From: Longimicrobiales bacterium
GTDB lineage: Bacteria > Gemmatimonadota > Gemmatimonadetes > Longimicrobiales > Gaopeijiaceae
Direction of reading: 5' to 3'
Assembly (NCBI GenBank): GCA_028279425.1
Contig: JANQNV010000225.1
Location: forward strand, 1-33,859
DNA length: 33,859 nt
Each line of letters begins with the position of its first letter. Positions within the stretch are counted from its first letter, which is position 1. The translations under genes were made by a program, and so were the position numbers. A model generated the notes under the pieces. The model did not search any database. It was not told the DNA's origin and was given only the letters and a program-made list of their open reading frames with translations. Below are positions 9,905 through 33,766 of this stretch, in pieces.

Positions 9905-10102
9905 GAAGACGCTCCTGGTTCTTCGAAGTGAGGCCCGGCACCGGGGCAACGATCTTGAAACCGACGGCCCAACGGCCGACGCTCGACGGAGGGGACTACC
10001 CCGTCGAGAGGTGTGTCGATCCGAGGACGGATCCGCCCTACCTTACGACGGGGTGACCCTGCGTCTTCACCTCGTACGACCACGTCCCACCGGGCCCCCA
10101 GC
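9905..10102. other. Divergent intergenic region between M16 protease and NRPS-like gene
   Basis: About 200 bases that must contain two divergent promoters. The protease Shine-Dalgarno AGGAG is at 9912-9916 on the minus strand. A TACCTT at 10039-10044 could be a plus-strand -10 for the NRPS-like gene, but no good -35 accompanies it. I see no gene, repeat or operator here. Confidence 0.4.
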
Positions 10103-13100
10103 ATGTCACCCACGTCGTTCCGCTGCTTCGTGATCGGATCGGACACCCTGCTCCTGGAGTGCACCGATCACCTGCTCGCGGCCGGGCACACCGTTCTCGG
10201 TGTCGTCACCGACACCCCACGCATCGCCGAGTGGGCCCGACAGCGCGGGATCCCCGCGATCGAGCCGTCCGGGATGGACGAGGCGATGGCCTCCGAGCCC
10301 TTCGACCATCTCTTCTCGATCACCTGGCTCCGAATCCTCCCGGACGAGGTCCTGGATCGCCCCGGCGGATACGCCATCAACTTCCACGACGGGCCCCTTC
10401 CCGCGTACGCCGGTCTCAACGGCCCGGCCTGGGCCCTCATGGACGGGGCGCGCGACTTCGGGGTGACGTGGCACCTGATGACGTCGGGCGTCGACCAGGG
10501 CGACCTCGTTCTGCAGACCCCGGTCGCGATCTCGGACGAAGACACATCCCTGTCGCTCAACATGAAGTGCTTCGCGGCGGCTCGAGAGGGCTTCCCCGCG
10601 CTGGTGGACCAGCTGGCGCGAGGTGCGGTGCAGCCGGTGGCTCAACCCACCGAGGGCCGCAGCTGGTTCGGCCGCCACGACCGCCCCGACGCTCTCGGTC
10701 TCCTCGACTGGCGACGCCCGGCCGCCGAACTCGCGGCCCGTGTGCGCGCCCTCGACTTCGGGCCGTATCCCAACCCCCTGGGTCGAGCCAAGATGATCAC
10801 GGCCGATGGACGGGCCTGGCTCGTTACGCGTGCGATCGCGTCGGAGGGCGATCCCGATCCGTCGGGTCGCGCCCCCCTGCCGGGCACGGTCCTGGCCGTG
10901 CGATCCGACAGCATCGAGATCGCCACCGGCTCGGGCCGTCTTCAGATCGGCGAGCGCCGACCGCTCACGGGTGGTCCCCCACTCGATGCCGCTTCCGAGG
11001 CGGCGCGACTCCACGTGGGCGACGTGCTCCCCGTGCCCTCGGAACACGATCGGGACCGCCTCGCGGCACTGTCGGACATCTTGTCGCGTAGCGAGGCCTT
11101 CTGGGGACGCCGACTTCTTGAGATGACGCCCGCGGAGTTGCCCGACCGCACCCCCTTCGACCCCGACGTCCGCCGCGCGACCCCTCGGGAACGCATTCCC
11201 CTTCGCCTCGCGTCCGAAACCGACGAGGGCGCGCTGGTCGCGGCCTGGGCCGTGGTCGTGGCTCGCCTCAGCGGCCGCACGCGGTTCGACTTCGGGTGGC
11301 TCGAGTCCGCCGATGAGGTGTCTGCCCGACCGATGGTCTCGTCCTGGCGCCCCCTCCAGATCGATCTTCCCGACGGTGCGGGATTCGATCCGGTGGTCGA
11401 TGCGGTCATCACGCAGTTGGCCGAGCTTCGACGTCGCGGCTCGTTCCTCATCGACCTCCTGTCGCGCTCGCCCGATCTCGACGGCACCGTCCCCGACGGT
11501 CACTGCCCGCTCCCCCTCTGTGTGGGTCGAGGGTCGACGCACGACGCCGGCGTCGAGATGCTCCTCGAACTCGGCGAAGGATCCGGACCACCCCACCTGT
11601 CGTTCGATCCCGATCTCGTTTCGGAGACACGCGCCGCGACCATCGCTCGAGCCGTGGAGTGCGTGGTGCGCGCCGCGGCGGCAGACCCCCGGCAGCCGTG
11701 GTCTACCCTCCCCCTCATCGACGACGAGACGCATCGGCTGCTGATGGAGGGGTGGAACGACACCGCGCGGCCCGTGACCGAGCACTTCCTGCACGAGGGC
11801 TTCGAGCGCCAGGCGCGTCGCGACCCCGAACGGATCGCCCTACGCGACGCAGACCAGACCATCACCTACGGAGAACTCGACCGACGCGCCAACGGTGTGG
11901 CCGCCCATCTGCGCGACCTCGGCGTGGGCCCCGATTCCGTCGTCGGCCTTCAGATCGGTCGCTCCATCGAGATGGTGGTCGCGGCCCTGGGTATCGCGAA
12001 GGCGGGAGGCGCCTACCTGCCGCTGGACCCCGAATTCCCGGATGACCGGCGCCGATTCATGCTGGAGGACGTCGGCGCCGAGCGGGTGATGACGATCGGT
12101 CAGGAGCCCCTCGGTCCGGGCATCACGTCGATCGACGTGCGAGAGCCCGCACCCATCGACACCCCGCCCGAGACCGCGGTCGGTCCCGAGCACCTCGCCT
12201 ACGTCATCTACACCTCCGGAAGTACCGGCCGGCCGAAGGGCGTTCTCGTCGAACACCGCAACGCCGCCAACTTCTTCGCGGGGATGGACGCACTCATCCC
12301 GCACGATCCACCGGGCGTCTGGCTCGCGGTCACGAGCCTCTCGTTCGATATCTCCGTGCTCGAGCTGTTCTGGACACTGGCCCGCGGCTTCGAAGTCGTA
12401 CTGCACCGGGAGCCTTCGGCCGACGATCCCGCCGAAACCTCGGCCGCAGCGCATGCGACGTTGGCGGAGCGGGGGATGCAATTCGGACTCTTCATGTGGG
12501 GGAACGACGACGGCCCGGGGCGCGACAAGTACCGCCTGATGCTGGAGGCCGGCCGCTACTTCGACGACAACGGCTTCGACTCGGCGTGGACGCCGGAACG
12601 ACACTTCCACGCCTTCGGAGGCCCATTCCCCAATCCGGCCGTGACGGGGGCCGCCCTCGCGGCCATCACGCGTCGGCTCTCGATCCGTTCGGGGAGTTGC
12701 GTCTCGCCCCTCCACCATCCGATCCGCATCGCCGAAGAGTGGGCCGTCGTCGACAACCTCTCCGACGGCCGGGTCGGGCTGGCGTTCGCGGCAGGCTGGC
12801 AACCCAACGACTTCGTGTTGCGACCGGAGAGCTATCCGAACCAGAAGCAGGTGATGATGGAGCAGATCGACGCCGTGCGGCGCCTCTGGCGCGGCGAGGC
12901 CGTCGAGTTCGAGAACCCGCTCGGGAAGATGGTGGCGCTGACGACGCTGCCCCGGCCGGTTCAGCCGGAGCTGCCGTTCTGGATCACGACCGCCGGAAAC
13001 CCGGACACCTACCGCGCTGCGGGGGCGATGGGCGCGAACGTCCTCACACACCTGCTGGGACAGAGCTTCGACGAAGTGGCCCAGAAGATCGCGGTCTATC

Positions 13101-14758
13101 GCGAAGCCAGGGCCGAAGCCGGCCTCGACCCCGACGAGGGGACGATCACCCTGATGCTGCACACCTTCGTCGGGACCGACGACGACGAGGTGCGCGAGCT
13201 CGTGCGCGAACCGATGAAGGACTATCTGCGCGCCTCCATGAAGCTCGTGCTCGGCTTCGCATGGACCTTCCCCGCGTTCAAGCGGCCGGGTGGGCCGGAC
13301 TCGACGCCCGACGACATCGACCTGGCCAGCCTTTCAGACGAAGAGACGGAGGCGATCCTGGACTTCGCCTTCGACCGCTACTACGAAACGAGCGGCCTCT
13401 TCGGAACTCCGGAAACCTGCCTCGACATCGTGGCTCGCTGCGCCTCGATCGGCGTCGACGAGATTGCGTGCCTTCTCGACTTCGGGGTCGACACCACCGC
13501 GGTTCTCGACGGGCTCCCTCACCTCAAGATCGTCCGCGATGCGGCCAACGCACAGCGGGAGGCGGCACCCGACACCCGCCCGGTCGTCGAATCGACCGGT
13601 GCCGCGAGCCCTCCCCCACCAGAGCCCGCGCGGCCCGTCACCCACCTGCAGTGCACCCCTTCGATGGCGCGCCTGTTCACGCAGCGGAGTTCGATGGGAC
13701 CGCTGCTCCACGGACTCGACCACATGTACGTCGGGGGCGAAGCCTTCCCCACGGCTCTGTCGACGGCCCTCCGCGCCACGGTGCGGGGATCGGTCACGAA
13801 CATGTACGGGCCCACCGAAACCACCATCTGGTCGACGACCCACACCCTCGACCGCGATGGACCCGTACCCATCGGTCGCCCGATCGCCAACACGTGTATC
13901 TACGTGCTCGATGCCTGGGGCCAGCCGGTCCCGCCCGGAATGCCGGGAGACCTGTGGATCGGCGGCGACGGCGTCGTGCGGGGGTACCACGCCCGACCGG
14001 AACTCACGGCCGAACGCTTTCGTCCGAACCCCTTCCACCCGGGCCGGATGTACAACACGGGCGACCGTGCACGGTGGAGCCGAGACGGGGTCCTCGAATT
14101 CCTGGGTCGCGTCGACGACCAGGTGAAGATCCGGGGGTATCGGATCGAACTCGGCGAGATCGAGGCCGTCTTGGAGAGGCGCACCGACGTACGCGAAGCG
14201 GCCGTCATCGTGCGTGAGGATACACCGGGTGACCAGCGCTTGTGCGGCTACGTCGTGCCCGCCGGCGAATGGAACCCCGAGGCACTGCGCGACGCGATGC
14301 TCGAGGCCCTACCGGCCTACATGGTCCCCGCTTCGCTGATTCGCCTCGAAGCCCTTCCGCTCACCCCCAATCGCAAGACCGACCGGAAGGCCCTGCACGC
14401 CATCTCGGCCGCCCCGTCACGCACCGCCCCGCTCGTCGCTCCCGAAAACGACCTGGAGGAGACGCTGGTGGCCGCGTGGAAGGAGGTCCTCGGCCTCGAG
14501 GAAGTCGGTACCGAAGACAACTTCTTCGATGCCGGCGGCCACTCCCTCCTGGTCGTTCAGCTGCACCGGCTCCTGGGGGAGCGGATCGATCACCGGCTTT
14601 CGCTGGTCGATCTCTATCGATGGCCGACGATCCGGGCGCTTTCGGATCAGCTGCAGTCGAGACGCGACGCCTCGAACGGGCCGGATGCGGCACTCGACGC
14701 GAGCGCGGCGCGCGGCGCCCGGCGGCGGGAACTGATGCGACGCAGACGCGGGGGTTGA
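10103..14758 (+). CDS. NRPS-like enzyme: formyltransferase / half condensation / adenylation interrupted by luciferase-like monooxygenase / carrier
   Basis: A 1551-residue single-gene assembly line. Residues 1-310 form a methionyl-tRNA-formyltransferase-like domain with its N93, H95 (INFHDGPLP) and D131 (SGVDQGD) triad intact. Residues about 320-540 resemble only the C-terminal lobe of a condensation domain; no HHxxxDG is present. An adenylation domain begins near 560, with A3 YTSGSTGRPKG (703-713) and A4 FDIS (748-751). It is interrupted at about 775-1150 by a complete FMN/F420-type luciferase-like monooxygenase of the MupA/Atu3671 type. It resumes with A5 NMYGPTET (1233-1240), A7, A8 and A10 (NRKTDRKAL), then a carrier domain with phosphopantetheine serine S1481 (DAGGHSLL). 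No thioesterase. My reading of the specificity pocket is DILQYGMIWK, close to the glycine code. I prefer the ATG at 10103 over the GTG at 10013 because conserved sequence starts there. Product unknown. Confidence 0.9.
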   Translation: MSPTSFRCFVIGSDTLLLECTDHLLAAGHTVLGVVTDTPRIAEWARQRGIPAIEPSGMDEAMASEPFDHLFSITWLRILPDEVLDRPGGYAINFHDGPLPAYAGLNGPAWALMDGARDFGVTWHLMTSGVDQGDLVLQTPVAISDEDTSLSLNMKCFAAAREGFPALVDQLARGAVQPVAQPTEGRSWFGRHDRPDALGLLDWRRPAAELAARVRALDFGPYPNPLGRAKMITADGRAWLVTRAIASEGDPDPSGRAPLPGTVLAVRSDSIEIATGSGRLQIGERRPLTGGPPLDAASEAARLHVGDVLPVPSEHDRDRLAALSDILSRSEAFWGRRLLEMTPAELPDRTPFDPDVRRATPRERIPLRLASETDEGALVAAWAVVVARLSGRTRFDFGWLESADEVSARPMVSSWRPLQIDLPDGAGFDPVVDAVITQLAELRRRGSFLIDLLSRSPDLDGTVPDGHCPLPLCVGRGSTHDAGVEMLLELGEGSGPPHLSFDPDLVSETRAATIARAVECVVRAAAADPRQPWSTLPLIDDETHRLLMEGWNDTARPVTEHFLHEGFERQARRDPERIALRDADQTITYGELDRRANGVAAHLRDLGVGPDSVVGLQIGRSIEMVVAALGIAKAGGAYLPLDPEFPDDRRRFMLEDVGAERVMTIGQEPLGPGITSIDVREPAPIDTPPETAVGPEHLAYVIYTSGSTGRPKGVLVEHRNAANFFAGMDALIPHDPPGVWLAVTSLSFDISVLELFWTLARGFEVVLHREPSADDPAETSAAAHATLAERGMQFGLFMWGNDDGPGRDKYRLMLEAGRYFDDNGFDSAWTPERHFHAFGGPFPNPAVTGAALAAITRRLSIRSGSCVSPLHHPIRIAEEWAVVDNLSDGRVGLAFAAGWQPNDFVLRPESYPNQKQVMMEQIDAVRRLWRGEAVEFENPLGKMVALTTLPRPVQPELPFWITTAGNPDTYRAAGAMGANVLTHLLGQSFDEVAQKIAVYREARAEAGLDPDEGTITLMLHTFVGTDDDEVRELVREPMKDYLRASMKLVLGFAWTFPAFKRPGGPDSTPDDIDLASLSDEETEAILDFAFDRYYETSGLFGTPETCLDIVARCASIGVDEIACLLDFGVDTTAVLDGLPHLKIVRDAANAQREAAPDTRPVVESTGAASPPPPEPARPVTHLQCTPSMARLFTQRSSMGPLLHGLDHMYVGGEAFPTALSTALRATVRGSVTNMYGPTETTIWSTTHTLDRDGPVPIGRPIANTCIYVLDAWGQPVPPGMPGDLWIGGDGVVRGYHARPELTAERFRPNPFHPGRMYNTGDRARWSRDGVLEFLGRVDDQVKIRGYRIELGEIEAVLERRTDVREAAVIVREDTPGDQRLCGYVVPAGEWNPEALRDAMLEALPAYMVPASLIRLEALPLTPNRKTDRKALHAISAAPSRTAPLVAPENDLEETLVAAWKEVLGLEEVGTEDNFFDAGGHSLLVVQLHRLLGERIDHRLSLVDLYRWPTIRALSDQLQSRRDASNGPDAALDASAARGARRRELMRRRRGG

Positions 14759-15603: not shown

Positions 15604-16752
15604 TCACGACGGCGCCGGCGTACTCCCCGCAGCGTGGGCCTGCTCGACGAGGCGCCGAGCGGCGCCCTCCACATCGTCCTGCGCCAGAAGGCTGCCGCCG
15701 ATGAGCAGCAGCGTGTCGGTCCCGTAGCGTTCGAACCACGAAGGCGCGTCGGAGGCGCTGACGCCTCCCGCAGGCACGGGGAAGCTGGCTCGCAAACGCC
15801 CGAGGGGAGCCCGCAGACGCCGATTCAGCCCCTGACAGGTGTCGATCGACCAGGCGAACCGGCCGCCCGCGTTCACGTACACCACGGCGTCGGCCCCCGC
15901 AAGGCGATACAGCAACCCATACCACACCTCCGGGCTCACGCCCGAGTCGCGGCCGGGCCCCACGTCGCCGCGCGAAGGGTGCGCCATGACCGGAAGGGCG
16001 GGCTCGGCATCGGCGAGCGCCCGCATGGTGTCGAGTCCGACCAGGCCCGGTGCGACGAGCACACCTCCGCACCCCACCTCGGCGGCCTGCTCCACGCGCT
16101 CTCCCATCGTGTCCACAGGGCCCGTCACATTGACGTAGTAGGCCGTGCGCCCTCCGGTGGCGGCATTCGCCTCGGCCACGGCCTTCGCCACTGCGCCGAC
16201 GCGATCCGAGAATCGCGACGGCGCCTGGTCGGTCACCCCGTGATCGTCCTTGATGACGTCGACGCCCGCTCGGGCAAACGCGGCAGCGAGCTCAGCGAGC
16301 TCCGACGTCTGCAGCCCGACGGGCTTCAGGGCCACCGCCACGAGCGGCCGATCGTGGGCATCGAGTCGGTCCCGGATCCCGCCGATCCCGAAGCGAGGCC
16401 CGGCGAAGGCCTCCAGGACGGACTCGGGGAGGGTGGCATCGACGAGCCGCACTCCGGGGAGCAACGACACGTTGCCGTGCAAGACGTTCAACAGCTGCGG
16501 CAGGCTGCCATCGAGCACCGCCGCCGGGTAGTCGATGCGGGCCGTCGCCGCCCCGTCGGCATCGGGCTCGACCCCGATCACCCGCCCGAGCAGCCCCCCC
16601 TCGATCGAGGCCGATGCGACCCCCACCGGTACCTCGAGCGTCGACTCGCGCGCCAACGCCAGGGCGCGCGCCGTGAACGATGCGACATCGTCGCCACCGA
16701 GGGGAGCGAGTCGGTAGACGGCGCGCACGACGTCCTCGCCCTGCTGACTCAC
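15604..16752 (-). CDS. RuBisCO-like protein (form IV large-subunit homologue)
   Basis: A 382-residue homologue of the RuBisCO large subunit that cannot be a carboxylase. The lysine of the carbamate site is kept (K168 in GVDVIKDDH) with D170, but the third metal ligand, Glu in true RuBisCO, is His171. K143 in ALKPVG matches RuBisCO Lys175, while the second lysine of KPK is Val. VMAHPSRGD (H258) and the phosphate-binding glycines PAGGVSASD and LIGGSLL are present; the loop-6 lysine is not evident. This is the pattern of RuBisCO-like enolases and isomerases, several of which act in methionine salvage or other sulphur metabolism. The GTG at 16752 overlaps the stop of the OsmC gene by 4 nt and has GAGG upstream. 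A nominal frame extension to 17793 runs through OsmC and is not real. Substrate unknown. Confidence 0.88.
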   Translation of the reverse strand: MSQQGEDVVRAVYRLAPLGGDDVASFTARALALARESTLEVPVGVASASIEGGLLGRVIGVEPDADGAATARIDYPAAVLDGSLPQLLNVLHGNVSLLPGVRLVDATLPESVLEAFAGPRFGIGGIRDRLDAHDRPLVAVALKPVGLQTSELAELAAAFARAGVDVIKDDHGVTDQAPSRFSDRVGAVAKAVAEANAATGGRTAYYVNVTGPVDTMGERVEQAAEVGCGGVLVAPGLVGLDTMRALADAEPALPVMAHPSRGDVGPGRDSGVSPEVWYGLLYRLAGADAVVYVNAGGRFAWSIDTCQGLNRRLRAPLGRLRASFPVPAGGVSASDAPSWFERYGTDTLLLIGGSLLAQDDVEGAARRLVEQAHAAGSTPAPS

Positions 16753-17216
16753 CCGGGCGCCTCGGTGATATCGGCCGTCCAGGCGACCTCGACGGCGCCC
16801 TCGAGCGACCGTGCCGTGGGGCACTTCGACACGTGGCGCGACAGCGCGCGATCCACCGTCTCTCGCGATCCCGCGGGGATGCGGAGGGTGTAGTGGACGT
16901 CGATGCGAGTCAGCACGGGAATCCGGTCCCGCAACGTATGGTGTCCGGCTGCGTCGGCGACGATGTCGGCCGGACCAAGCGAAATCCCGCGCACCTCCAG
17001 TGCGCCGTTGAGAGTCCCGAGTAGTCAGGCACACGCCGCCGCGACGATGAAATCGACCGGCAGCGGATGATCCGGCTCGGCGTCGAGACCGTAGGCCGCC
17101 TTGATCGGACCGTGCACGCCGAAGGTGACCTCGGTCCCGTCTTCGAGAATCCCCCGGCGGGTCACGCCTTCGACTTTGTGGACTCGGCTCGTCGCAGTAT
17201 ATACGCTGTCGCTCAT
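16749..17216 (-). CDS. OsmC-family peroxidase, predicted selenoprotein (in-frame TGA = Sec64)
   Basis: OsmC/Ohr-family proteins are thiol peroxidases that reduce organic hydroperoxides with a reactive and a resolving cysteine. From the ATG at 17216 (GAGGAG just upstream) the frame reads MSDSVYTATS to AAACA, then TGA at 17027-17025, then continues LLGTLNGALEVRGI to a stop at 16749. The full protein is 155 residues, normal for the family. The TGA falls at residue 64, exactly where OsmC proteins have the peroxidatic cysteine (pattern A-C-x3-T). The second conserved cysteine is present as C132 in SKCPTARSL; the 64-132 spacing of 68 is close to 66 in E. coli OsmC. A hairpin 25 nt after the TGA fits a bacterial SECIS. 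Automatic gene callers would split it or call it a pseudogene. The alternative is a TGC-to-TGA mutation or base-call error. It overlaps the RuBisCO-like gene by 4 nt. Confidence 0.82.
16989..17005 (-). promoter_or_regulatory. SECIS-like hairpin downstream of the OsmC TGA codon
   Basis: Read on the minus strand, GCGCAC-TGGAG-GTGCGC gives a perfect 6-bp stem with a 5-nt loop. The loop begins 26 nt after the TGA (25 nt between), and G is the second loop base. Bacterial SECIS elements usually have a short stem with a loop starting some 16-37 nt after the UGA and a G among its first two bases, so this hairpin meets the general rule. In such GC-rich DNA a 6-bp stem can arise by chance. Confidence 0.5.
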
Positions 17217-28789: not shown

Positions 28790-29169
28790 TGCGCCGACCC
28801 CGGCTCCGCGAGCAGATCGCGACCGCGAGCCACGTCGAGCATCCGGCGCATGCGGACCAGCTCGGCCCTCAACGCCTCCCGCCCCCGCAAGGTGAGCGCG
28901 TGGACGCGCCGCCGGCCCGGTTCGGGCGGATCGTCGGGTCCCGGCGGCACCTCGCGAATCCACCCGCGTTCCTCGAGGTCGCGGAGGGACCCGTAGAGTG
29001 TGGCGGGCCACAACCCCATCGCCCCATCGGTCTGCTCGAGCACCTCCTCCATGATCGCCGAGCCGTGCATGTCCGCACCCGACAGGGCGAGGAGAATCTG
29101 GAACCAGTGGGCCTTCAGCATCTCCGACATGAAGCGACCTGGGGTGGTGAGTGGGGCGAACAACGCCAT
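28786..29169 (-). CDS. PadR-family transcriptional regulator
   Basis: Small winged-helix repressor that controls the ADOP gene it overlaps. Core at about 18-90: HWFQILLALSGADMHGSAIMEEV, LWPATLYGSLRDLEERGWI and the winged-helix RRRVHALTLRGREALRAEL, with a C-terminal dimer helix. The frame is open to 29406, but family homology starts around MALFAP (ATG 29169, 127 residues) or MSEMLKAHWF (ATG 29130). I give 29169 with AGG upstream; 29130 is equally possible. A large nested palindrome starts 9 nt upstream of 29169 and is the probable operator, shared with the divergent giant gene. Confidence 0.88.
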   Translation of the reverse strand: MALFAPLTTPGRFMSEMLKAHWFQILLALSGADMHGSAIMEEVLEQTDGAMGLWPATLYGSLRDLEERGWIREVPPGPDDPPEPGRRRVHALTLRGREALRAELVRMRRMLDVARGRDLLAEPGSAQ

Positions 29170-29177
29170 ACCTGCCG

Positions 29178-29215
29178 CGAAACTATCGTACGGTATATAC
29201 GGACCGATAGTTTCG
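29178..29215. promoter_or_regulatory. Nested palindrome between padR and the amidohydrolase gene, likely PadR operator
   Basis: Perfect 11-bp arms CGAAACTATCG (29178-29188) and CGATAGTTTCG (29205-29215) enclose 16 nt whose middle is another palindrome, GTATATAC (29193-29200). Both have the same centre, between 29196 and 29197. The only asymmetric parts are TACG and GGAC. It is the AT-richest spot in the neighbourhood and probably also holds the -10 elements. The position suits autoregulation of padR-ADOP and control of the divergent gene. Confidence 0.7.
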
Positions 29216-29290
29216 GATCGACGCGGAAACGGCGCGACCCCCGTAGGTTCCGGGTCGTCTCCCGAGCCGAGTCCCCCGACGCCCCTCGCG

Positions 29291-32200
29291 ATGCCTCGCC
29301 ACACACTCCTCCTGGTCGGCAGCCTCATGGCCCTGGCCACCATGGCCAGCGCCCAGACTCCACCGCTCCCGGTCGACACCGTCGACTTCACGACCCGCGA
29401 GGGCACATGGATCTCGCTCGACGTCCATCCCGGCGGTGAACGTCTCGTCTTCGAACTACTCGGCGACGTCTATGAACTCCCGATCGCGGGCGGGCATGCG
29501 ACCCCGATTCTGACGGGGCGTGCATTCCAGTCGCAGCCGCGGTATTCACCCGATGGATCGCAACTGGTCTTCATCAGCGACGCGTCCGGCTCCGACAACG
29601 TCTGGGTCTCGGGGGCCGACGGCCGCGGGGCACGGCCGGTCACCACCCTTCCGCGCTCGGGGATGCTGTCCCCCGCCTGGTCGGCCGACGGTCGATCGGT
29701 CTTCGTCACCGTGGTCGATTCCTACGGGGCGAGAGCCGCGGAAATCTGGCGGTACGATGTCGCCACGGGCGAAGGCGCCCGCGTCGTGGAAAACATGAAC
29801 GGTCGGGCCGCCCCCCTCGTGTCGTCGCCGGCCTCGGGGCCCTACGGCGCCTGGCCGACAGGGGATGGCTCGGCTCTCTGGTTCACATCGGTGACGCCGC
29901 GCCCCTACGGAAGCCGAAACGGGGCCACCAGTCGACTCATGCGGGTGGGCGTCGAGGGTGGAACGCCGTCCCCGGTCCGCGTCGACGGGACGCCGGCCAT
30001 GAAGCCGACGCTGTCGCCCGACGGCGACCACCTCGTGTACGCCACCGTCCGCGAGGGGCGCACCGGACTGAAGGTGCGCGACCTGAGCAGCGGTACCGAA
30101 CGCTGGTTGGCGCTGGGGATCGATCGCCACCAGCTCGAAGGCCGGGCCACCCGCGACGTGCTGCCCAACATCGCCTTCGCGCCCGATGGGCGCTCGCTCT
30201 ACGCCGCGCATGGGGGCAAGATCCGGCGGATCTCCCTCGCGGACGGCTCGTCGGTCGACGTGCCCTTCGAGGCGGACGTATCGCTGGAGGTGACCCCGAC
30301 GCTCCGGTTCCCGCGCCGCCTCGGCACCGGACCGGTCGAGGGACGCCGGATGACCCAGGTCGCGGCGGGCCCGGGCGGGCGGAACGCATTCTCGTCGCTG
30401 GGGCGCATCTGGATCACCGGCGACGACCCATTCGAACCTCGGCGGCTCACCCGCAGCGTGCGCCCGCGCGAGTTCATGCCGGCGTGGTCGCCCGATGGGC
30501 GATGGGTGGCCTACGTCACCCTCGACGAAGAGGGTGGGGCTCTCTGGAAGGCCCCCACCGTCGGCGACGCCCCCGCGGTACGGCTGTCGAGCGACCCGGG
30601 CTTCTGGGCGGACCCCGCGTGGACGCCGGACGGTGCGACCGTGGTCGCGCTGAAGGCGCCCCTGAGCTCGACGCTCGCAGGGCCACCGGGTTCGATCCCA
30701 CCCGACGCCCAGGTGGTCGCCGTGCCGGCGTCCGGCGGTCCCTATCGTGCCCTCGCTCCGGCCGGCCGGGCCCGTAGGCCGCACTTCGTCGCCGCGGGGA
30801 GCGACGATGAGGACGACCGCGTCTGGCTCAGCGGCCCCGACGGTCTGGTGTCCGTGGGCATGGCGTCGGGCGACCTGCGCGTGGAGGCCCGACTCTCGGA
30901 CGGCGCACCCCGGGGTTCGGAACTGCGGATGGTGCCTTCGGGTGAGGCCGTCGCGGCCCGCCTCGGTGCGCGGCTCGTCCGTATCCCCTTCACACCCGAT
31001 TCGGTCGGCCCTCGGGAGCTCGACCCCTCCGCCGGCTCGCTGGTCGCGGAGCCCGTGAGCGCCGACTGGAGTTGGGCAAGCGACGGTCGTTCGGTGGCGT
31101 GGTTGAGCGCGGGCACGTTGCTCCGAGCCGAGGTGGGCACCGACACCCCCCTCGAACCGGTGGCCTCGCGGCTGGAGGTCGCCCTCCCCCGCTCCGTGGC
31201 GTCCGGGAGTGTCGTCTTGCAGGGCGCGACGGTGATCACGATGGCGGGCGACGAGGTGATCGAGGGCGCCGATGTGGTCGTGACCGACGGTCGCATCGCT
31301 GCCGTGGGGCCGAGCGGCACGCTCGCACGGCCGAGCGGGGCGGAGACCATCGATCTGCAAGGGAGGTACATCGTACCCGGATTCATCGACCTGCATGCGC
31401 ACTGGGGCCCCTCGGGCGACATGCCTCAGGCCGAATCGACCAACGGTCTCGCCAATCTGGCGTTCGGTATCACCACCATCCGCGACCCGCAGAACAACGC
31501 CGACATCTTCGGCCTCGCCGACATCGTCGAGGTGGACGGTGCTCCGTCTCCGAGGGTGCTATCGACGGGCCCCGGGGTGTTCGGTGGAACGAACTTCCAG
31601 TCCCTCGACGAGGTCCGCTCGGCCCTCGCACGCTACCGCGACGAGTACGGGACGGCCTACTTGAAGTCGTACCTCGTCGGAAATCGCCAACAGCGGCGGT
31701 GGGTGGTCCAGGCCTCGCACGAACTCGGGCTCATGCCCACGACCGAGGGGGGCGCCGACACCAAGGAGAACCTCACCCACGTGGTCGATGGATTCTCGGG
31801 ACTCGAACACGCCGTTCCGGTCGCCCCCGTCCACGACGACGTGGTACAGCTGCTGGCCCGAACGGGGATCACCAACACGCCCACCATCGTCGTCGCCTTC
31901 GGCGCCGCACTCCCCATCTACCGTCTTCTCGCGCAGGAACGGCCGCACGAGAATCCCCGCATCGATCGATGGTTTCCCGAGGGAGCTCTGTACCAGCGCA
32001 CGTCGTCGCGCCTGCTCTGGTTCCCACCCGAGGATTATCACGATCGTGAGATCGCCGCCGGCGCCAACGAGGTCCTCCGCGCGGGTGGACACATCGGCCT
32101 GGGCGGGCACGGCGAGGTCCAGGGGCTCTCCAACCACTGGGAGATGGCGCTCCTGGCCGGCGGGGGCATGCGCCCGCACGACATCCTGCGCGTGGCCACG

Positions 32201-33766
32201 GTGGAGGGCGCCCGCGCGCTGGGACTGAGTAGAGACCTCGGCAGCATCGAGGCAGGCAAGGTCGCCGACCTCGTGGTCCTCGACTCCGATCCCCTTCAGG
32301 ACATCGGCGCGGCAGCGGATATCGCGTACGTGATGAAGGCCGGCGCCCTCTATCGCGGCCCCACCCTGGATCGCGTCTGGCCCGACCCCACACCCCTCGT
32401 CCTCCCGTGGTCGCTTCGCCGCGAATCTCTGCCCACCTCTGCCGAGGTGGACCATGTGGTCGCCGAAACCATGGCGGAGTCGAGGATCCCGGGACTCGCC
32501 CTCGCGGTGATCCGACAGGGTGAGGTGGTGGTCGCCCGAGGGTACGGCACCGCCGAGCTGGAGCACCGTACCCCGGTGAGCGAGACGACCATGTTTCAGT
32601 CGGGCTCCCTCGGGAAGCAGTTCACCGCTGCGGGCATCATGGCGCTGGTGGAAGACGGCCGACTCGACCTCGAAACCTCGGTTCGGCGCTACCTGCCCGA
32701 GGCCCCGGACGCCTGGGAGGCCATTCGAATTCGGCACCTCCTGAACCACAGTTCGGGGATCCCCGATTACACCGGCGACGACTTCGACTACCGCCGGGAC
32801 TACAGCGACGTCGACCTCGTGCGGATGGCGGGTGACCTACCGCTCGAGTTTCCAGCAGGCACCCGTTGGAACTACTCCAACACGGGGTACGTCATGCTCG
32901 GGATCGTGATGACCCGCGTCGCCGGGCAGCCGTACTACGAGTACCTGCGCGAACGCATCTTCACGCCGGCCGGGATGCCGACCATTCGGGTGATCACCGA
33001 GTCGGATGTGGTGCCCGACCGGGCCCGCGGATATCTGCCCGTGCCGGGCGGCTGGGAGCATGCCGCCTGGGTCGCGCCGAGGCTGAACACGACGGCCGAC
33101 GGGTCGATGCTGCTGTCCTTGCGCGACATGATCGCGTGGCACGAAGCCGTACGCAGCCGCTCGGTTCTTCGGGAGGAGAGCTGGGCCCGGATCCTCGCTC
33201 CGATGACCCTCAACAGCGGGCGGAGCTATCCGTACGGCTTCGGGTGGTTCCTCGGCGAAGCAGGCGGACGGGCGATGCAGGAGCACGGCGGTGCCTGGCA
33301 GGGCTTCGTGACCCAGTTCACCCGATTCAGCGACGACGATCTCGCCGTGGTCGTGCTGTCGAACGCCCGGACTCTGACGCCGGGGCCACTCGCCCGCGCC
33401 ATCGGTGCCCTCTACGACCCCTCCCTCGCCCCACCGCGGCCTCCGGACACCCCGATCGAGGACTCCGATCCGGAGGCCACGGCCTACGTCCGGGAGATGC
33501 TCGTCAAGGCCGCCGGAGAGGGGCTCGAACGGTCGGACTTCGACTTCGTGCGACAGACGATCTTCCCGCGGATCCGCGCCGCGCTGTCCAGCTCGCTGGC
33601 CGGCAGGAATGCCCCGAGTCGGCTGGAACTCCTGGCCCGGCGCGAGGTCGGTGACGACGTCGAGCTGCAGTACTTCGCCTGGTACGGAGCCGATCGCCTG
33701 CGGGTGATCGCCACGCTCGGCCCCGACGGTGGACTGACCGGGCTGAGAGTCGTCCCCGCACCCTAG
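29291..33766 (+). CDS. Secreted TolB-like propeller / amidohydrolase / beta-lactamase-type serine hydrolase fusion
   Basis: A 1491-residue exported protein. Signal peptide (LLLVGSLMALATMASA); residues about 30-630 form PD40/WD40-like propeller repeats (SPDGSQLVF, SADGRSVF, SPDGRWVAY); 640-1045 is an amidohydrolase with the metal motif HAH (H702, H704), lysine K792 in YLKSY and H840 in LEHA. Glu819 (TTEGG) stands where many relatives have His. Residues 1065-1400 are a class-C beta-lactamase/PBP4*-like domain with S1106-K1109 (SLGK), Y1195-N1197 (YSN) and H1332-G-G as the third motif. The propeller-amidohydrolase pair is a known architecture; the added serine hydrolase is unusual. The frame is open from 29000, but the ATG at 29291 begins the signal peptide. 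Periplasmic peptide or imide hydrolysis is plausible; the substrate is unknown. Confidence 0.9.
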   Translation: MPRHTLLLVGSLMALATMASAQTPPLPVDTVDFTTREGTWISLDVHPGGERLVFELLGDVYELPIAGGHATPILTGRAFQSQPRYSPDGSQLVFISDASGSDNVWVSGADGRGARPVTTLPRSGMLSPAWSADGRSVFVTVVDSYGARAAEIWRYDVATGEGARVVENMNGRAAPLVSSPASGPYGAWPTGDGSALWFTSVTPRPYGSRNGATSRLMRVGVEGGTPSPVRVDGTPAMKPTLSPDGDHLVYATVREGRTGLKVRDLSSGTERWLALGIDRHQLEGRATRDVLPNIAFAPDGRSLYAAHGGKIRRISLADGSSVDVPFEADVSLEVTPTLRFPRRLGTGPVEGRRMTQVAAGPGGRNAFSSLGRIWITGDDPFEPRRLTRSVRPREFMPAWSPDGRWVAYVTLDEEGGALWKAPTVGDAPAVRLSSDPGFWADPAWTPDGATVVALKAPLSSTLAGPPGSIPPDAQVVAVPASGGPYRALAPAGRARRPHFVAAGSDDEDDRVWLSGPDGLVSVGMASGDLRVEARLSDGAPRGSELRMVPSGEAVAARLGARLVRIPFTPDSVGPRELDPSAGSLVAEPVSADWSWASDGRSVAWLSAGTLLRAEVGTDTPLEPVASRLEVALPRSVASGSVVLQGATVITMAGDEVIEGADVVVTDGRIAAVGPSGTLARPSGAETIDLQGRYIVPGFIDLHAHWGPSGDMPQAESTNGLANLAFGITTIRDPQNNADIFGLADIVEVDGAPSPRVLSTGPGVFGGTNFQSLDEVRSALARYRDEYGTAYLKSYLVGNRQQRRWVVQASHELGLMPTTEGGADTKENLTHVVDGFSGLEHAVPVAPVHDDVVQLLARTGITNTPTIVVAFGAALPIYRLLAQERPHENPRIDRWFPEGALYQRTSSRLLWFPPEDYHDREIAAGANEVLRAGGHIGLGGHGEVQGLSNHWEMALLAGGGMRPHDILRVATVEGARALGLSRDLGSIEAGKVADLVVLDSDPLQDIGAAADIAYVMKAGALYRGPTLDRVWPDPTPLVLPWSLRRESLPTSAEVDHVVAETMAESRIPGLALAVIRQGEVVVARGYGTAELEHRTPVSETTMFQSGSLGKQFTAAGIMALVEDGRLDLETSVRRYLPEAPDAWEAIRIRHLLNHSSGIPDYTGDDFDYRRDYSDVDLVRMAGDLPLEFPAGTRWNYSNTGYVMLGIVMTRVAGQPYYEYLRERIFTPAGMPTIRVITESDVVPDRARGYLPVPGGWEHAAWVAPRLNTTADGSMLLSLRDMIAWHEAVRSRSVLREESWARILAPMTLNSGRSYPYGFGWFLGEAGGRAMQEHGGAWQGFVTQFTRFSDDDLAVVVLSNARTLTPGPLARAIGALYDPSLAPPRPPDTPIEDSDPEATAYVREMLVKAAGEGLERSDFDFVRQTIFPRIRAALSSSLAGRNAPSRLELLARREVGDDVELQYFAWYGADRLRVIATLGPDGGLTGLRVVPAP

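What the first reader, a model, noticed from the sequence alone, without database searches (positions are those of the whole stretch)
16749..17216. OsmC-family gene with TGA at the peroxidatic cysteine: predicted selenoprotein
The frame is interrupted by a single TGA at 17025-17027, and both halves together give one full-length OsmC protein of 155 residues. The TGA coincides with the family's reactive cysteine. The resolving cysteine C132 is intact, 68 residues later. The frame then ends in a 4-nt overlap with the next gene, which a decaying pseudogene would not be expected to preserve. Cys-to-Sec replacement at a peroxidase active site is the classic selenoprotein pattern, and Sec-containing OsmC-like proteins have, as I recall, been reported in metagenome surveys. 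Standard annotation would miss this gene.
Basis: partly seen in the sequence, partly recalled or inferred. Interest (0 to 1): 0.88.

Follow-up and report, generated by a model that had tools for sequence, protein, structure and literature searches.

The report
Selenium-containing OsmC peroxidase-like protein gene
A gene that ordinary annotation would read as broken is very probably a working one in which a stop codon codes for the selenium amino acid selenocysteine, in a small antioxidant-type protein shared by many Gemmatimonadota bacteria; this kind of protein was first predicted in 2005.

Summary
The finding holds. On the minus strand, codons 1-155 (17216 to 16752) form one OsmC-domain protein interrupted only by TGA at codon 64 (17025-17027). 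The genome (a Gemmatimonadota draft, judged by same-genus records) carries tRNA-Sec, SelA, SelB and SelD; SelD has an in-frame UGA of its own. All 42 matched genes spanning codon 64 in 58 genomes, the window's included (one remote Cys OsmC aside), and all 80 loci kept from a scan of 84,980 species genomes have TGA there, never TGT/TGC. C132 is kept wherever readable, and downstream codons are under purifying selection.

A hairpin, its loop 25-26 nt after the UGA, meets all four published bacterial SECIS criteria. Six pairs hold in 85 of 85 distinct sequences, with compensatory changes that also swap amino acids (A72/V75 to V72/A75); 7% of synonymous recodings keep all six.

OsmC-like selenoproteins have been in print since 2005 from a few marine sequences, so the kind is known. 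Not found in my paper searches: this Sec-only clade in Gemmatimonadota and a few Eisenbacteria, with two paralogues and motif U-x-x-G-T, not the printed UxxT. Sec insertion and hydroperoxide reduction remain inferred. The 4-nt overlap with the next gene is real but not conserved.

The parts
16749..17216 (-). OsmC-domain selenoprotein gene, 155 codons plus TGA stop (ATG 17214-17216; stop 16749-16751)
17025..17027 (-). in-frame TGA, codon 64, predicted selenocysteine at the family's reactive cysteine position
   Evidence: aligned with Cys of T. thermophilus OsmC 1ukk; TGA in 80 of 80 loci
16989..17005 (-). SECIS hairpin: seven-pair stem 16999-17005 with 16989-16995, loop GGA 16996-16998 (UGGAG if the closing U-G pair is open); the loop starts 25-26 nt after the UGA
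16821..16823 (-). Cys132, predicted resolving cysteine (KCPTA motif)
15604..16752 (-). downstream RuBisCO-like protein gene (GTG start, 4-nt GTGA overlap); neighbour only, not a conserved partner

Best explanation
This is a working selenoprotein gene. SelB and Sec-tRNA, guided by the SECIS hairpin after the UGA, decode codon 64 as selenocysteine and give a 155-residue OsmC-fold protein. By analogy with OsmC and Ohr proteins, the selenolate of Sec64 would attack a hydroperoxide (or another small electrophile), and Cys132 would resolve it as a selenenylsulfide that a dithiol then reduces. Shown by computation: the frame, the genome's Sec machinery, conservation of the UGA, the hairpin and its covariation, purifying selection after the UGA, and a predicted OsmC fold. 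Inferred: actual insertion of Sec, the peroxidase chemistry, the substrate and the reductant.
For: Machinery in the same genome: tRNA-Sec 72.5 and 72.1 bits against a cut-off of 47, anticodon TCA; SelB 334 bits against 242; SelA 469 bits plus its C-terminal part on another contig; SelD 356 bits against 125, with UGA at GAGUACK. In the one-contig genomes G002 and G003 (same genus), G026 and G029 (same family), the gene, tRNA-Sec and SelB lie on that one contig. Co-occurrence over 58 genomes: tRNA-Sec of 62 bits or more in 29 of 31 genomes with the gene and 7 of 27 without, Fisher p 8e-8; SelB over cut-off 28 of 31 against 8 of 27, p 2e-6 (no correction for kinship). UGA conserved: 42 of the 43 rows that span codon 64, the other being the remote G041 OsmC; 80 of 80; 150 of the 150 rows printed of the 395-genome phylum search (further rows cut); and 12 of 13 rows of eight genomes re-searched, the 13th ending before codon 64. 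SECIS: six of seven pairs standard in 85 of 85 distinct sequences and the seventh in 83, 30 cells changed on both sides; 0 of 500 shuffles reach the observed value in four of five measures. Codons 72/75 are GCA-GTG 60, GCG-GCG 19, GTG-GCA 5, GCG-GTG 1, while GCA is 8.5% of Ala codons elsewhere in these genes; random synonymous recoding keeps all six pairs in 1184 of 17000. dN/dS 0.10-0.32 after the SECIS region and 0.07-0.29 before the UGA in five pairs. AlphaFold model pLDDT 95.9; the 50 Foldseek matches shown include many named OsmC or Ohr.
Against: No direct proof of Sec: no proteomics, no 75Se, no reporter. Two genomes with the gene (G011, G014) lack a tRNA-Sec hit and three (G007, G011, G014) lack SelB over its cut-off; all are fragmented drafts of 81-88% completeness, G014 has a SelB fragment of 148.6 bits and G007 has tRNA-Sec, but G011 has neither. 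In the window genome SelB is matched only over positions 1-345 of 581, near a contig end. No Cys form was found inside the subfamily, so the usual Cys/Sec pair argument rests on remote OsmC proteins. The window genome is a draft with 5.8% estimated contamination. In 50-60 nt of context the hairpin is only modestly more stable than shuffles (z -1.4 and -1.1; -3.2 for 29 nt). Of the five covariation measures one (further pair types) is reached by 137 of 500 shuffles, and slid partners still pair in up to 70.6% of cells. Independent switches on starred branches number only 3 (sign test p 0.25). Some dS values are saturated (up to 1.9).
Confidence: 0.96

Rival explanations
1. A pseudogene or sequencing error: the TGA is an ordinary nonsense mutation or a misread codon.
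For: Draft metagenome assembly; only one in-frame stop; the NCBIfam search of the read-through protein gives no family.
Against: The same TGA at the same codon in 42 of 42 subfamily rows, 80 of 80 loci and 150 of 150 printed rows from many assemblies; purifying selection after the TGA; a covarying hairpin beyond protein constraint.
Confidence: 0.01
2. UGA is read as another amino acid (reassigned code or a suppressor tRNA), not as Sec.
For: UGA-to-Trp or Gly codes exist in some bacteria (recalled).
Against: The gene's own stop is TGA; tRNA-Sec, SelA, SelB and SelD are present, and tRNA-Sec and SelB co-occur with the gene; the position is the OsmC cysteine; a hairpin under selection would not be needed.
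Confidence: 0.01
3. Programmed termination: the 63-residue N-terminal product is the functional one and full-length protein is rare or regulated by selenium supply.
For: SelB-dependent read-through competes with release factor 2 in known systems (recalled).
Against: The reactive position, C132 and most of the OsmC domain (Pfam match 48-146) lie at or after codon 64; codons after it are under purifying selection.
Confidence: 0.02

Closest known systems
OsmC-like selenoprotein (Sargasso Sea 2005 and GOS 2008 metagenome surveys; listed in the 2022 and 2026 reviews)
   Same: OsmC family (COG1765, PF02566) with Sec from in-frame UGA; for the Sargasso family a bacterial SECIS just downstream is shown (PMC1088965, PMC2398784, PMC9312934, PMC13188914: passages, tables and legends seen).
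   Different: The papers print the redox motif UxxT, from 3 (Sargasso) and, as I read the table, 5 (GOS) sequences, beside Cys homologues; here the motif is U-x-x-G-T (Thr at +4), no Cys form was found in the subfamily, and the hosts are mostly Gemmatimonadota with a few Eisenbacteria. Whether the published sequences fall in this clade could not be tested.
OsmC / Ohr hydroperoxide reductases (1ukk, 1nye, 1n2f, 6ebg) and 1ml8 (YhfA by recall)
   Same: Same fold (the 50 Foldseek matches shown: E 3e-9 to 6e-7, probability 1.00), reactive residue on the central helix, resolving Cys in a CP motif aligned to 1ukk.
   Different: Sec instead of Cys; low identity (8-23%); where 1ukk has Glu-Glu ten and nine residues before the Cys, U-10 is Val or Leu and U-9 is Asp in 111 of 111.
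Bacterial SECIS (consensus model, PMC13188914 Fig. 2 legend)
   Same: All four printed constraints are met: loop and stem size, G in the first two loop positions, 16-37 nt spacing, MFE.
   Different: Nothing essential; the stem sequence is near-invariant with compensatory swaps at codons 72/75 and once at 71/76.

Membership tests
Selenoprotein gene (bacterial) | In-frame UGA conserved at a redox-active Cys position of homologues | tested here: met
   UGA in 80 of 80 loci; aligned with the OsmC Cys of 1ukk; the homologues with Cys are remote OsmC proteins, none in the subfamily
Selenoprotein gene (bacterial) | selA, selB, selC (tRNA-Sec), selD in the genome | tested here: met
   selA is in two contig-end pieces and selB is matched only in part, near a contig end
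Selenoprotein gene (bacterial) | Sec physically present in the product | not testable with these tools
   needs mass spectrometry or 75Se labelling
Bacterial SECIS (model in PMC13188914 Fig. 2 legend) | 3-9 nt apical loop and 4-16 bp upper stem | tested here: met
   seven-pair stem with 3-nt loop, or six pairs with 5-nt loop if the U-G pair is open
Bacterial SECIS (model in PMC13188914 Fig. 2 legend) | G in the first two loop positions, mostly N1-G-[G/U]-N-N2 with N1 and N2 paired | tested here: met
   UGGAG in 77 of 85 distinct sequences; GG in 85 of 85
Bacterial SECIS (model in PMC13188914 Fig. 2 legend) | 16-37 nt between UGA and apical loop | tested here: met
   25-26 nt, counted on the sequence
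Bacterial SECIS (model in PMC13188914 Fig. 2 legend) | MFE at or below -7.5 kcal/mol | tested here: met
   -11.6 for the window hairpin (22 nt); 85 of 85 sequences at or below -7.5
OsmC superfamily (PF02566) | Profile match over the curated cut-off and OsmC fold | tested here: met
   44.8 bits against 27.5; predicted model and Foldseek
OsmC superfamily (PF02566) | Second (resolving) Cys in the CP motif | tested here: met
   C132 in 110 of 111 distinct sequences: 109, plus the short L144, whose Cys 68 residues after the U is; L126 has an ambiguous base there
Ohr/OsmC hydroperoxidase with Arg-Glu-Cys active site | Catalytic Glu at C-10 and Arg on the N-terminal strand (recalled from Ohr literature) | tested here: inconclusive
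   Arg20 is invariant in A1 and A3; U-10 is Val (98) or Leu (13) and U-9 is Asp in 111 of 111; geometry not measured
Published OsmC-like selenoprotein | Motif UxxT as printed | tested here: not met
   U-x-x-G-T, Thr at +4, in the 42 UGA rows and the 80 loci; the published sequences themselves were not available for comparison

The most novel reading that the evidence does not exclude
This is a Sec-only OsmC subfamily, distinct from the published UxxT one, with two paralogues, in which Sec has no Cys substitute: genomes without the Sec trait lack the gene instead of carrying a Cys version. Its active site (Sec, an Asp in place of the usual Glu, invariant Cys132) may do chemistry that Cys cannot, and it may be one of the genes that keep the Sec trait alive in Gemmatimonadota.
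Probability: 0.35. Interest if true: 0.6.

Novelty: new member of a known kind. Interest (0 to 1): 0.42.

Why it matters
A standard gene caller would be expected to end this protein at codon 64 or miss it (not checked: no annotated record of a relative was held), so a protein family found, as one or both paralogues, in 115 of 395 sampled genomes of the phylum may be truncated or absent in databases. [quoted passage not shown] a clade in which I found only Sec is a place to ask why Sec is kept. The hairpin is also a clear case where RNA structure inside a coding region limits which amino acids co-occur (A72/V75, A72/A75, V72/A75), so conservation of that stretch should not be read as catalytic constraint alone.

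Tried and rejected
Operon partner: the RuBisCO-like neighbour was tested as a functional link; only 1 of 80 related loci has it within the fetched flank, and no gene cluster accompanies the OsmC gene in more than 21 of 81 neighbourhoods, by a crude ORF caller and with flanks that are short in some loci. Rejected.

C62, two residues before Sec, was considered as a redox partner (C-x-U); it is Cys in only 4 of 111 distinct sequences. Rejected.

Rfam: no family hits the window at gathering score, and the SECIS stretch gives only one chance-level match on the other strand; Rfam's models do not recognise this element.

A scan of the window for other long frames split by one TGA gave five further splits, on either strand; I looked only at the 15 residues printed on each side and did not follow them up, so they neither support nor exclude further selenoprotein genes.

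The fold of L018 was taken at a wrong offset and says nothing about SelD's SECIS; it is not used. One search translated the minus-strand loci on the wrong strand; one search replaced it. The independent-pair test of compensatory changes had too few supported branches to reach significance.

Full report
OBSERVATION. The finding's coordinates are right but the gene is on the minus strand. Read there, 17216 to 16749 gives MSDSVYT...VAAACA-TGA-LLGTLNGALEVRG...KCPTARSL...EAPG-stop, one internal TGA at 17025-17027, codon 64 of 155. Pfam OsmC matches over its cut-off across the TGA. C132 follows 68 residues later. The stop and the GTG start of the next gene overlap by GTGA; the next gene is a RuBisCO-like protein.

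THE GENOME. The window is contig 61 of a 339-contig draft, 89.8% complete and 5.8% contaminated by estimate. The genome has two tRNA-Sec genes with anticodon TCA, SelB over its cut-off but matched only over positions 1-345 of 581 near a contig end, SelA in two contig-end pieces and SelD. SelD has its own UGA in GAGUACK, the place of its catalytic Cys (recalled), so this genome very probably uses Sec in at least one other gene.

CO-OCCURRENCE. In 58 genomes, the window's included, 31 carry the UGA gene. tRNA-Sec of 62 bits or more is in 29 of these 31 and in 7 of the other 27 (Fisher p 8e-8); SelB over cut-off in 28 of 31 against 8 of 27 (p 2e-6). Kinship is not corrected for. Three genomes without the gene and with weaker tRNA-Sec hits of 49-52 bits (G013, G047, G048) were counted as lacking it. 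Exceptions are G011 and G014 for tRNA-Sec and G007, G011, G014 for SelB; G014 holds a SelB fragment of 148.6 bits, and only G011 (82% complete, 640 contigs) has neither. In the 27 genomes without the UGA gene the search (E up to 0.001) found no Cys counterpart except one remote OsmC (G041, 26 bits). In the one-contig genomes G002, G003, G026 and G029 the gene, tRNA-Sec and SelB lie on the same contig.

CONSERVATION OF THE UGA. In the same 58 genomes the search listed 44 rows: 29 orthologues (the window's included) and 13 paralogues (33-38% identical to the window protein), all 42 with exactly one TGA, plus a 34-residue C-terminal fragment and the remote Cys protein. A scan of one genome for each of 84,980 species matched 103 stretches, of which 83 encode relatives and 80 were kept; all 80 have TGA at this codon and no other stop, although one of the two search patterns asked for Cys at that place and so could have found Cys forms. 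A Cys form that lacks both patterns would be missed. Titles name Gemmatimonad- or Longimicrobiales organisms in 66 of 80; the others are five Eisenbacteria, three Acidobacteria(ota), two contigs of one bin labelled Deltaproteobacteria, two uncultured bacteria, HRbin33 and Benthicola. An even draw of 395 genomes of the phylum gave matches in 115 (E up to 1e-8, either paralogue); the 150 rows printed all carry one TGA, further rows were cut. Re-searching eight of these genomes, six of them with weak matches, gave 13 rows, 12 with one TGA and one partial row that ends before codon 64.

SELECTION. Against five relatives, aligned without gaps from the UGA outwards, dN/dS was 0.07-0.29 before the UGA and 0.10-0.32 after the SECIS region, some dS values being saturated; the 13 codons right after the UGA had no amino-acid change and a lower synonymous difference in all five, as an overlapping RNA element would cause.

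THE SECIS. 122 genes (80 + 29 + 13) gave 111 distinct sequences and 85 distinct 45-nt stretches from the TGA, 72 of the main clade and 13 paralogues; three Cys OsmC rows (L001, L002, L063) were left out. The window hairpin is GCGCACU-GGA-GGUGCGC, stem 16999-17005 with 16989-16995. Six pairs are standard in 85 of 85 sequences and the seventh in 83; three pairs show changes on both sides, 30 cells; no shuffle of 500 reaches the observed value in four of five measures, while the fifth (further pair types) is reached by 137; sliding the partner lowers pairing from 99.7% to between 15.5% and 70.6%. These shuffles do not allow for relatedness. Codons 72 and 75 occur only as GCA-GTG (60), GCG-GCG (19), GTG-GCA (5) and GCG-GTG (1): where residue 75 is Ala and residue 72 is Ala too, codon 72 is GCG, not GCA; where residue 72 is Val, codon 75 is GCA. 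GCA makes up 8.5% of Ala codons elsewhere in the same genes. In L142 codons 71/76 are GCC-CGG instead of GGC-CGC, again keeping the pairs. Recoding the stretch with synonymous codons at the genes' own usage keeps all six pairs in 1184 of 17000 trials. On a tree made without these codons the codon-pair state changes at least 12 times on the best tree, but the tree has few columns and only three independent contrasts sit on starred branches (on average 3.0 of 3 in the expected direction, p 0.25). The 2026 review's SECIS model asks for a 3-9 nt loop, 4-16 bp stem, G in the first two loop positions, 16-37 nt spacing and MFE at or below -7.5 kcal/mol (passages); all are met, and UGGAG fits the commonest pattern printed.

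FOLD AND ACTIVE SITE. AlphaFold, on 46 sequences (the window's and 45 of the 80 loci), gives pLDDT 95.9; among the 50 Foldseek matches shown the best solved ones are 1ml8 (YhfA by recall) and OsmC/Ohr structures, E 3e-9 to 6e-7. By sequence the profile hits only one solved chain at E up to 0.01, T. thermophilus OsmC 1ukk (E 1.7e-5), with Sec64 on its Cys and C132 on its second Cys. U-9 is Asp in 111 of 111 distinct sequences and U-10 is Val or Leu, where 1ukk has Glu-Glu; I recall the Ohr catalytic Glu as C-10, so the acid may have moved. This is a lead, not a test.

MECHANISM. Shown by computation: a conserved UGA at the reactive position, the decoding machinery, a hairpin under selection that fits the SECIS model, a predicted OsmC fold. 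Inferred: Sec insertion, attack of Sec64 on a peroxide, and resolution by C132 followed by reduction by a dithiol. No conserved neighbour names a partner.

WHAT IS KNOWN. OsmC-like selenoproteins were predicted from 3 Sargasso Sea sequences, with 10 Cys homologues there (tables and legends, PMC1088965), and, as I read the table, 5 in GOS (PMC2398784), motif UxxT in both; reviews of 2022 and 2026 list one accession each (table passages, PMC9312934 and PMC13188914). The main text of the deep-Sep paper does not contain OsmC or Gemmatimon- (find, PMC12013277). Searches for selenoprotein or selenocysteine with Gemmatimonad- found 18 and 19 papers, of which I saw 15 listings each; no listed title is about a selenoproteome of that phylum. 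Searches for OsmC with selenoprotein or selenocysteine found 7 and 10 papers, all listed; I looked into four of them. A groundwater MAG study cited in the 2026 review as Deng et al. was not among the listings (10 of 16 shown in the latter) and I did not read it; it may overlap with this clade. So the kind is known; the clade, its hosts, the Sec-only pattern and the codon covariation were not in what I could search.

Noticed in passing
window 10013-14758 (+): One 1581-aa protein with formyltransferase N and C domains, an adenylation domain (AMP-binding, two stretches) with a luciferase-like monooxygenase domain embedded in it, and a carrier domain: an NRPS-like module of unusual layout.
   Followed up: partly
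window 15604-16752 (-): RuBisCO-like protein (PF00016, below every NCBIfam cut-off it matches, best to 2,3-diketo-5-methylthiopentyl-1-phosphate enolase) overlapping the OsmC gene by 4 nt; of 80 related loci it was found in L066 only.
   Followed up: partly
window 29000-33766 (+): 1588-aa protein with a PD40 propeller repeat match, an amidohydrolase domain and a beta-lactamase-type (PF00144) domain in one chain.
   Followed up: no
L004 and L005 (G000 contigs 71 and 127): Two tRNA-Sec genes over the cut-off in one draft genome; G016 also has two of equal score. May be duplication or contamination.
   Followed up: no
L050-L062: A second Sec-OsmC paralogue clade (U-x-x-G-T-[FL]-G-G, CPVY motif) with the same SECIS, in 13 of 58 genomes but not in the window genome.
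   Followed up: partly
L018 (G000 contig 324): SelD of the window genome is itself a UGA-containing gene (GAGUACK).
   Followed up: partly
L064 (G028 contig 40, 39984-40085): A 34-residue fragment matching the C-terminus of the OsmC gene (65% identical), about 2.3 kb downstream of the intact copy; possibly a decayed duplicate.
   Followed up: no
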